Shown here in pieces: positions 20,701 through 22,446 of a stretch of DNA of 64,000 bases. A program made the translations under genes and the position numbers. Source of the stretch: Thermoleophilum album (GTDB lineage Bacteria > Actinomycetota > Thermoleophilia > Solirubrobacterales > Thermoleophilaceae); NCBI RefSeq assembly GCF_028867705.1, contig NZ_CP066171.1, forward strand, positions 248,001-312,000, written 5' to 3'. How positions within the stretch are numbered: position 1 is the first letter of the stretch; the number at the start of each line of letters is the position of its first letter. The notes under the pieces are model-generated. The model was given only the letters and a program-made list of their open reading frames with translations. It made no database searches and was not told the origin of the DNA.

Positions 20701-22071
20701 TCACACTGGCCGCGTCCACGGCGCCTGCAGGCGCCGGGCAAGCTCGTCGCGCAGCGCGGCGGCAGGAACGCGCACCTGCTGGAGCGTGTCGCGGTCGCGC
20801 AAAGTCACCGTGTCGTCCTCGAGCGTCTGGCCGTCGACAGTGGCGCACCACGGCGTGCCGATCTCGTCCTGGCGGCGGTAGCGGCGGCCGATCGAACCGC
20901 CTTCGTCGTACTCGCAGAAGAAGTGCGCGCGCAGCTCTTCGTAGATGCGGCGCGCGCGTTCGGGCATGCCGTCGCGCGACACCAGCGGCAGTACGGCGAG
21001 CTTCACGGGCGCAAGGCGCGGATGCAGGCGCAGCACCGTGCGCTTGCGTCCCTCGACCTCCTCCTCGTCGTAGGCGTCGACGAGGAAAGCGAGCAACGCG
21101 CGGTCGGCGCCTGCCGACGGCTCGATCACGTGCGGCACGTAACGCTCGCCGGTGGCCGTGTCTACGTACTCGAGCTTCTCGCCCGAGAACTCGGCGTGGC
21201 GGCGCAGGTCGTAGTCGCCGCGGTTGGCGATGCCCTCGAGCTCGGCCCAGCCCATCGGGAACAGGTACTCGATGTCCGACGTCGCGCTCGAGTAGTGGGA
21301 GAGCTCGTCCGGTCCGTGGGCGCGCAGCCGCAGGTGCTCGGCGCGGATCCCGAGCTCGCGGTACCAGCGCAGCCGCTCCTCCATCCAGTAGCGGTGCCAC
21401 TGCTCGGCTTCCGCCGGCGGCACGAAGAACTCGATCTCCATCTGCTCGAACTCGCGCGTGCGGAAGATGAAGTTCCCCGGGGTGATCTCGTTGCGGAAGG
21501 CCTTGCCGACCTGGGCGATGCCGAACGGCGGCTTGCGGCGCGCGAACTGCAAGACGTTGCGGAAGTTGACGAAGATCCCCTGCGCCGTTTCCGGGCGCAG
21601 GTAGACGACCGCCGCCTCCTCCTCGACCGGCCCCATGTGCGTCTTGAACATGAGGTTGAACTGGCGTGGCTCGGTCAGCTCGCCGCCGCACTCGGGACAG
21701 CGGATCTCGCCTTCGGCGCGGTCGGAGCCGAGCTGGGCGGCGCGCAGCTCGTCTTCGCGCCAGCGCTTCTTGCACTTGCCAAGACACTGCACGAGCGGGT
21801 CAGTGAACCCTTCGAGGTGGCCGGACGCCTCCCACACGCGCGGGTGCATGAGGATCGCTGCATCCAACGCGACCATGTCGTCGCGCTCCTGCAGCACCGC
21901 GCGCCACCACTCCTGCTTGACGTTCTGCTTGAGCAGCACGCCGTAGTGGGCGTAGTCGTAGGTCGACGCGAGCCCGCCGTAAATCTCCGACGACTGGAAG
22001 ACGAAACCGCGGCGCTTGCAGAGCGCGACGACCTGCTCCATCGTGACCGTTCGCGGTTTAGCCTCGGCCAT
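20701..22071 (-). CDS. glyS: glycyl-tRNA synthetase, dimeric type
   Basis: Charges tRNA-Gly. Class II synthetase of the alpha-2 (eukaryote/actinobacteria-like) type, not the alpha2-beta2 form. Motif 2 is seen in FRNEITPGNFIFRTREF, motif 3 in PSAGADRALLAFL, and the zinc-like cysteines in CLGKCKKRW and CPECGG. About 456 residues from ATG 22071, the normal size. A longer reading to 22311 would run through the divergent FmdB gene and its operator, so it is rejected. TACCCT on minus (22081-22086) ends nine bases before ATG 22071. Confidence 0.95.
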   Translation of the reverse strand: MAEAKPRTVTMEQVVALCKRRGFVFQSSEIYGGLASTYDYAHYGVLLKQNVKQEWWRAVLQERDDMVALDAAILMHPRVWEASGHLEGFTDPLVQCLGKCKKRWREDELRAAQLGSDRAEGEIRCPECGGELTEPRQFNLMFKTHMGPVEEEAAVVYLRPETAQGIFVNFRNVLQFARRKPPFGIAQVGKAFRNEITPGNFIFRTREFEQMEIEFFVPPAEAEQWHRYWMEERLRWYRELGIRAEHLRLRAHGPDELSHYSSATSDIEYLFPMGWAELEGIANRGDYDLRRHAEFSGEKLEYVDTATGERYVPHVIEPSAGADRALLAFLVDAYDEEEVEGRKRTVLRLHPRLAPVKLAVLPLVSRDGMPERARRIYEELRAHFFCEYDEGGSIGRRYRRQDEIGTPWCATVDGQTLEDDTVTLRDRDTLQQVRVPAAALRDELARRLQAPWTRPV

Positions 22072-22086: not shown

Positions 22087-22151
22087 CAGCGGTACACGGG
22101 CGGAGCACGCAAGCGGCGCCGGGCCGAGCGCCCCGGGCGTGGCAGTTTGCC

Positions 22152-22178
22152 TTGGCACTCCTATACTGAGAGTGCCAT
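22152..22178 (+). promoter_or_regulatory. CIRCE-like HrcA operator overlapping promoter and start codon
   Basis: TTGGCACTC (22152-22160), nine bases, GAGTGCCAT (22170-22178). The inner inverted repeat GGCACTC-N9-GAGTGCC is perfect. The heat-shock operator CIRCE is TTAGCACTC-N9-GAGTGCTAA, so the spacing is exact and the core matches. The spacer contains TATACT (22162-22167), a -10 box nine bases before ATG 22177, and the right arm runs into that ATG. HrcA bound here would cover the promoter. Confidence 0.8.
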
Positions 22179-22446
22179 GCCGATCTACGAGTACCGCTGC
22201 GAGCGCGGACATACCTTCGAAGTGATGCAGCGCATGAGCGACGAGCCGCTCACGAGCTGCTCGACCTGCGAGGCGCCGGCACGGCGCGTGCTCCACCCGG
22301 TCGCCGTGCACTTCAAGGGCAGCGGCTTCTACACCACCGACTACGGGCGCAACCGCACCAAGCGCATCGGGGGTGACGCTCCCGAAGGCGAGTCGAAGAG
22401 CTCGGGGTCGAGCAGCGACAGCTCGGGTTCCGCGAGCGACGACTGA
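22177..22446 (+). CDS. FmdB-family zinc ribbon protein
   Basis: 89 residues. It begins MPIYEYRCERGHTFEV, the family signature, and continues with SCSTCEAPARRVLHPV; the C-x(n)-H and C-x2-C pairs form a zinc ribbon. A Ser/Asp/Gly-rich acidic tail of about 25 residues ends it. FmdB proteins are small putative regulators of unclear role; in several bacteria they sit beside chaperonin genes. Here the upstream CIRCE-like site suggests heat-shock control by HrcA. The mRNA is probably leaderless. Confidence 0.88.
   Translation: MPIYEYRCERGHTFEVMQRMSDEPLTSCSTCEAPARRVLHPVAVHFKGSGFYTTDYGRNRTKRIGGDAPEGESKSSGSSSDSSGSASDD

What the first reader, a model, noticed from the sequence alone, without database searches (positions are those of the whole stretch)
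22152..22178. CIRCE-like HrcA operator on an FmdB zinc-ribbon gene, merged with promoter and start codon
TTGGCACTC-N9-GAGTGCCAT has the exact spacing and core of the chaperonin operator CIRCE. The -10 TATACT sits in the spacer and the right arm runs into the ATG of the FmdB gene. CIRCE normally controls groESL, dnaK or hrcA. It suggests the FmdB zinc ribbon, whose role is unclear, is a heat-shock protein in this lineage.
Basis: partly seen in the sequence, partly recalled or inferred. Interest (0 to 1): 0.7.

Follow-up and report, generated by a model that had tools for sequence, protein, structure and literature searches.

The report
HrcA heat-shock operator on fmdB promoter
A small zinc-ribbon protein gene carries, fused to its promoter and start codon, the switch that heat-shock repressor HrcA uses on chaperone genes; its M. 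tuberculosis relative Ruc is already known to be an HrcA-controlled chaperone, so this is a conserved variant of a known circuit rather than a new one.

Summary
TTGGCACTC-CTATACTGA-GAGTGCCAT (22152-22178) contains a perfect CIRCE core and ends inside the ATG of an FmdB zinc-ribbon gene (22177-22446). The genome encodes HrcA. It holds only three perfect GGCACTC-N9-GAGTGCC sites, two before groES and one before fmdB. In the same family, 22 of 28 fmdB genes keep the site (18 with a perfect core); six lost it but five of those keep the -10. In 201 genomes of the order, 56 have CIRCE within 60 bp of an fmdB start, against 0 for the reversed control pattern.

CIRCE also precedes fmdB in many other Actinobacteria and some other phyla.

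Two things seem new. In Thermoleophilia fmdB looks leaderless, and the operator sits on or just upstream of the -10, not in a 5' UTR. The zinc site is degraded (C-x3-H...CxxC) in most, and all cysteines are gone in two clades that keep CIRCE, which predicts Ruc-like chaperones controlled by transcription alone. HrcA binding, heat induction and chaperone activity were not tested here.

The parts
22152..22178 (+). CIRCE operator TTGGCACTC-N9-GAGTGCCAT (arms 22152-22160 and 22170-22178)
   Evidence: 0.02 expected by chance per window; one of 3 perfect sites in the genome, the others at groES; conserved in relatives
22162..22167 (+). -10 element TATACT inside the CIRCE spacer
   Evidence: TATACT ends 8-10 nt before the start codon in all 27 family sequences where it was found, including 5 that lost the CIRCE arms
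22139..22144 (+). weak -35-like hexamer GTGGCA, 17 bp before the -10
   Evidence: consensus match only
22177..22446 (+). fmdB / ruc-like gene, 89 aa: N-terminal beta ribbon with Cys8, His12, Cys28, Cys31, and a low-complexity tail
   Evidence: Pfam PF09723 E 2.2e-15, TIGR02605 62.4 bits against 31.3; AlphaFold pLDDT about 94-95 for residues 1-40, about 46-59 for residues 51-89
20701..22071 (-). divergent glycyl-tRNA synthetase gene (glyS) sharing the 105-bp intergenic region
   Evidence: PF00587 and PF03129; glycine--tRNA ligase annotated under the blastn match

Best explanation
The element is a working CIRCE operator of the heat-shock repressor HrcA. At normal temperature HrcA bound at 22152-22178 would cover the -10 and the transcription start of fmdB and so block RNA polymerase. 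On heat or proteotoxic stress HrcA would lose activity (as in other bacteria), and fmdB would be switched on together with groES-groEL. The transcript is probably nearly or fully leaderless: the start lies about 0-3 nt before the ATG, so the left arm is not transcribed and the palindrome acts as DNA. The product is the local homologue of M. tuberculosis Ruc (Rv0991c), most likely a small partly disordered holdase chaperone. Shown here: the site, its conservation, the hrcA gene, the co-occurrence with groES, and FmdB family membership. Inferred: HrcA binding, repression and heat induction, the leaderless start, and chaperone activity.
For: Perfect CIRCE core with 0.02 matches expected per window. 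hrcA-dnaJ present. Only three perfect sites in the genome, at groES (two) and fmdB (one). In the same family 22 of 28 fmdB genes keep the site (18 perfect, 4 with 1-3 core mismatches); L225 shows a paired G:C to A:T change and L239 a paired A:T to G:C change. Six relatives lost the arms and five of these keep TATACT at the same distance from the ATG, so arms and promoter are separable and the arms are not a by-product of the promoter. In the order 56 of 201 genomes match CIRCE within 60 bp of fmdB against 0 control matches. In other Thermoleophilia the operator lies 26-39 bp upstream of the ATG, just above a shifted -10, and in other bacteria 12-54 bp upstream, before a Shine-Dalgarno: the layout changes, the pairing of CIRCE with fmdB stays. 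M. tuberculosis ruc is directly HrcA-repressed and heat-induced, and its product is a chaperone (PMC7448276; PMC8557902).
Against: No expression or binding data for this organism. The link was lost in 6 of 28 family members (G004, G011, G012, G021, G023, G059), so it is not indispensable. Two sister families in the order gave almost no matches (one, G038), and whether they lack fmdB or only the site was not resolved. The redox-zinc site that defines Ruc chemistry is altered here (three Cys plus His instead of four Cys), so the protein-level mechanism may differ.
Confidence: 0.87

Rival explanations
1. The inverted repeat is a true HrcA operator, but the FmdB product is not a chaperone: it is a zinc-ribbon transcription accessory factor (its fold resembles the RbpA zinc ribbon) that is merely co-regulated with chaperonins.
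For: The best structural neighbours of the model are RbpA or RNA-polymerase-complex chains (Foldseek E 0.044-0.061) and RbpA chain 2m6o is a weak sequence match (E 0.1). No activity test exists for the Thermoleophilia protein, and its first zinc knuckle is altered.
Against: All fold matches are above E 0.001 and small zinc ribbons resemble each other. The M. tuberculosis homologue prevents aggregation in vitro and hands clients to DnaK (PMC7448276). The flexible hydrophilic tail needed for that activity is present here.
Confidence: 0.12
2. The palindrome is not an HrcA site but the operator of another repressor, or an RNA hairpin near the start codon that controls translation.
For: The right arm overlaps the ATG, and the arms could pair if a longer transcript were made.
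Against: Exact CIRCE core and 9-nt spacing identical to the groES sites of the same genomes. The -10 lies between the arms, so a transcript from it lacks the left arm. In relatives with the operator further upstream the pairing with fmdB persists.
Confidence: 0.03
3. Chance or shared ancestry of an unselected promoter sequence.
For: In the closest relatives the region has not diverged much; part of the 27 bases is the conserved -10.
Against: The flanks just upstream differ widely among relatives while the arms are kept. Two layouts of the same pair exist in the order. The control pattern gives 0 of 201.
Confidence: 0.01

Closest known systems
M. tuberculosis ruc (Rv0991c) and its HrcA/SigH-controlled promoter (mBio 2020, PMC7448276)
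   Same: FmdB-type N-terminal zinc ribbon plus disordered tail; HrcA repression; belongs to the same regulon as the chaperonins. A mycobacterial homologue in our set (Mycobacteroides chelonae, L187) has CIRCE 28 bp upstream and 40% identity over 60 aa.
   Different: In M. tuberculosis the HrcA site overlaps a SigH site and the protein has four zinc cysteines. Here the -10 is inside the operator, the start codon overlaps the right arm, and one zinc cysteine is missing (C-x3-H...CxxC).
groES CIRCE of the same genomes
   Same: Same core and spacing. In the 10 family groES loci found with a perfect site, a -10-like TAGAGT overlaps spacer and right arm.
   Different: groES has a 5' UTR with a Shine-Dalgarno and up to two CIRCE copies; fmdB has one copy and apparently no leader.
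Hsp33 (redox-regulated holdase; comparison drawn in PMC7448276)
   Same: Works like: zinc-site, oxidation-activated holdase, as proposed for Ruc.
   Different: Unrelated in sequence according to that paper; the Thermoleophilia FmdB has an incomplete or absent cysteine set.

Membership tests
CIRCE / HrcA operator | TTAGCACTC-N9-GAGTGCTAA inverted repeat | tested here: met
   Perfect GCACTC-N9-GAGTGC; 3 of 18 positions differ from the consensus, all in the outer bases; outer bases match the G-C form of the groES sites of the same genome
CIRCE / HrcA operator | hrcA in the genome | tested here: met
   TIGR00331 235 bits; hrcA-dnaJ pair at C1:1304202-1304861
CIRCE / HrcA operator | same element at classical target groES | tested here: met
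   Two perfect copies 43 and 72 bp before the groES ATG
CIRCE / HrcA operator | position that lets the repressor block transcription | tested here: met
   Covers -10 and predicted start
CIRCE / HrcA operator | HrcA binds and represses | not testable with these tools
   Needs binding or expression assay
FmdB family | N-terminal FmdB zinc-ribbon domain | tested here: met
   PF09723 56.8 bits against 34.4; TIGR02605 62.4 against 31.3
Ruc redox-regulated chaperone | four zinc-binding cysteines (CxxC...CxxC) | tested here: not met
   Only Cys8, Cys28, Cys31; Cys11 of the family is deleted and His12 follows. It is filed as an FmdB-family protein, not as a redox-regulated Ruc chaperone
Ruc redox-regulated chaperone | hydrophilic disordered C-terminal tail | tested here: met
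   Residues 51-89 pLDDT about 46-59, Ser/Asp/Gly rich
Ruc redox-regulated chaperone | chaperone activity on oxidation | not testable with these tools
   Needs purified protein

The most novel reading that the evidence does not exclude
In Thermoleophilia, and independently in a second actinobacterial clade, the HrcA-controlled Ruc/FmdB chaperone has shed its cysteine redox switch (four Cys, three Cys plus His, or none) while keeping CIRCE, so a chaperone that is oxidation-activated in mycobacteria has become one that is always active and controlled only by HrcA; in Thermoleophilia this works from a leaderless promoter built into the operator.
Probability: 0.35. Interest if true: 0.6.

Novelty: new variant of a known kind. 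Interest (0 to 1): 0.42.

Why it matters
It places the little-known FmdB family firmly in the predicted HrcA heat-shock regulon far beyond mycobacteria, as one of only two promoters with perfect CIRCE in this genome. Lineages that keep CIRCE but have no cysteines in FmdB give a natural test of whether Ruc-type chaperones need the redox switch: in M. tuberculosis, Cys-to-Ser Ruc is active without oxidation (PMC7448276). The promoter layout also shows an operator that changed place relative to its promoter while its target stayed the same.

Tried and rejected
The list is cut by position and misses the groES sites; reading it as 'fmdB is the only site' would have been wrong (corrected). A HAIR (HspR) or CIRCE element before dnaK: none found in the 1.5 kb upstream (best HAIR match 5 mismatches; best CIRCE core 2 mismatches, not at the promoter). 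CIRCE before hrcA itself: none near its start better than 3 mismatches. Structure comparison with the PDB gave no match below E 0.001. Papers combining FmdB with CIRCE and HrcA: none of those listed holds all three; zinc ribbon with HrcA and CIRCE: none; none useful on leaderless CIRCE promoters or on comparative genomics of the HrcA regulon in Actinobacteria. CIRCE hits whose ORF is not FmdB (L107, L155, L179, L190, L201) were set aside as chance ATGCC starts.

Full report
WHAT IS THERE. Window 22152-22178 reads TTGGCACTC CTATACTGA GAGTGCCAT. The core GCACTC-N9-GAGTGC is perfect, the whole element has 3 mismatches to TTAGCACTC-N9-GAGTGCTAA, and shuffles of the window give 0.02 such matches. 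The -10 TATACT is at 22162-22167 inside the spacer, with a weak GTGGCA 17 bp upstream. The last A and T of the right arm are the first two bases of the ATG at 22177. The gene (22177-22446, 89 aa) is FmdB: PF09723 and TIGR02605 both above their curated cut-offs. It is divergent from glyS (20701-22071, -), with 105 bp between the two start codons.

IS HrcA PRESENT AND WHERE ELSE IS CIRCE. The genome (2.11 Mb, one contig) has one hrcA, followed by dnaJ. It has three perfect GGCACTC-N9-GAGTGCC sites: one at fmdB and two in front of groES; a fourth place, with one mismatch, was not followed. dnaK has neither CIRCE nor HAIR nearby and hrcA has no CIRCE. The list of weak matches is cut by position and must not be used to count strong sites.

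CONSERVATION. In the window's own family, 28 of 31 genomes have a clear FmdB relative. Of these 28 genes, 18 have a perfect core fused to the start codon (gap 1-2 nt), two have 1 mismatch (L231, L240), one has 2 (L238) and one 3 (L239). In L239 an A:T pair became G:C in both arms, and in L225 an outer G:C pair changed to A:T on both sides. Six have lost the operator (G004, G011, G012, G021, G023, G059; loci L245, L234, L227, L237, L224, L229). Five of those six keep TATACT at 8-9 nt before the ATG, so the promoter position is conserved independently of the operator. At least two of the six retain CIRCE at groES and have hrcA (G004 in L047, G023 in L039), which suggests that the fmdB link, not HrcA, was dropped.

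WIDER DISTRIBUTION. In the order, 56 of 201 genomes have CIRCE within 60 bp upstream of an fmdB start and none has the control pattern. hrcA is found in 194 of 201; most of the seven without a hit are incomplete assemblies. In the phylum, 16 of 396 genomes match the strict pattern. Some bin labels are doubtful, so the list of phyla is a lead rather than a count. The organism of the window itself is not named by the tools; its FmdB groups with those of bins labelled Thermoleophilaceae.

LAYOUT. Two groups separate (the loci were selected by CIRCE except for the family set). In Thermoleophilia-type genes (62), 58 have TAnnnT 5-13 nt before the ATG, 54 of the spacings at 9-10 nt, and only 7 have a Shine-Dalgarno-like stretch: fmdB looks leaderless. 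The operator either contains the -10 (gap 1-2 nt) or sits 26-39 bp upstream of the ATG just above the -10. In the other 84 genes, 80 have a Shine-Dalgarno-like stretch, 3 have such a -10, and CIRCE sits 12-54 nt before the ATG. So the pairing of CIRCE with fmdB has survived changes of layout. In the window's family the groES operators also carry a -10-like TAGAGT across spacer and right arm (10 of 10 loci read).

PROTEIN. AlphaFold gives a three-stranded ribbon for residues 1-40 (pLDDT about 94-95) and a disordered tail. Among 146 different homologues, 70 have CxxC...CxxC; the window protein and 47 others have C-x3-H...CxxC; 27 have no cysteine in the domain, and nearly all of these sets were found because they carry CIRCE. 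The Cys-less sequences form two separate groups on the tree (least changes 2, forced by well-supported branches). The tree has only 69 columns and includes the cysteine columns, so it is support, not proof; the two groups also differ in the downstream motif (HFKGxGFxNTDYG against TFKGGGFYKTDSG). PMC7448276 reports that Cys-to-Ser Ruc lacks zinc and is active without oxidation. Together this leads to the novel case: chaperones under HrcA control alone.

PRIOR KNOWLEDGE. PMC7448276 states that HrcA directly represses four genes in M. tuberculosis, three chaperonin genes and ruc; that Ruc rises at 45 C and in an hrcA mutant; that it is a zinc-binding chaperone activated by oxidation; and that ruc lies near chaperone genes in several phyla. 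PMC8557902 lists rv0991c-rv0990c as HrcA-controlled. The first paper's main text does not use the name FmdB, which may be why the link is easy to miss.

VERDICT. New here, as far as the held papers show, are the family-wide fusion of operator, -10 and start codon, the leaderless layout of Thermoleophilia fmdB, and the loss of cysteines under retained CIRCE. HrcA binding, heat induction, the transcription start and chaperone activity in this lineage remain inferred.

Noticed in passing
L052 around 1404-1453 (genome C1:2006231-2006282): groES has two CIRCE copies 29 bp apart, and a -10-like TAGAGT overlaps the spacer and right arm of the first; the same TAGAGT overlap is seen in all 10 family groES loci read.
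   Followed up: partly
L033, L057, L058, L060, L065, L082-L085 and others; also L098, L109, L119, L142, L172, L192: FmdB homologues without any zinc-binding cysteine, in two separate actinobacterial clades, keep CIRCE upstream.
   Followed up: partly
L224, L227, L229, L234, L237, L245: Six family members lost the CIRCE arms at fmdB; five keep the TATACT -10 at the same place, a natural set of operator losses.
   Followed up: partly
L054 1250-1490 (dnaK upstream): dnaK has neither CIRCE nor a HAIR element; how it is controlled in this genome is open.
   Followed up: no
L098, L133, L171: Metagenome bins labelled Bifidobacterium breve carry a Cys-less FmdB like that of bins labelled Acidimicrobiaceae or Actinomycetota; the species labels look wrong.
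   Followed up: no
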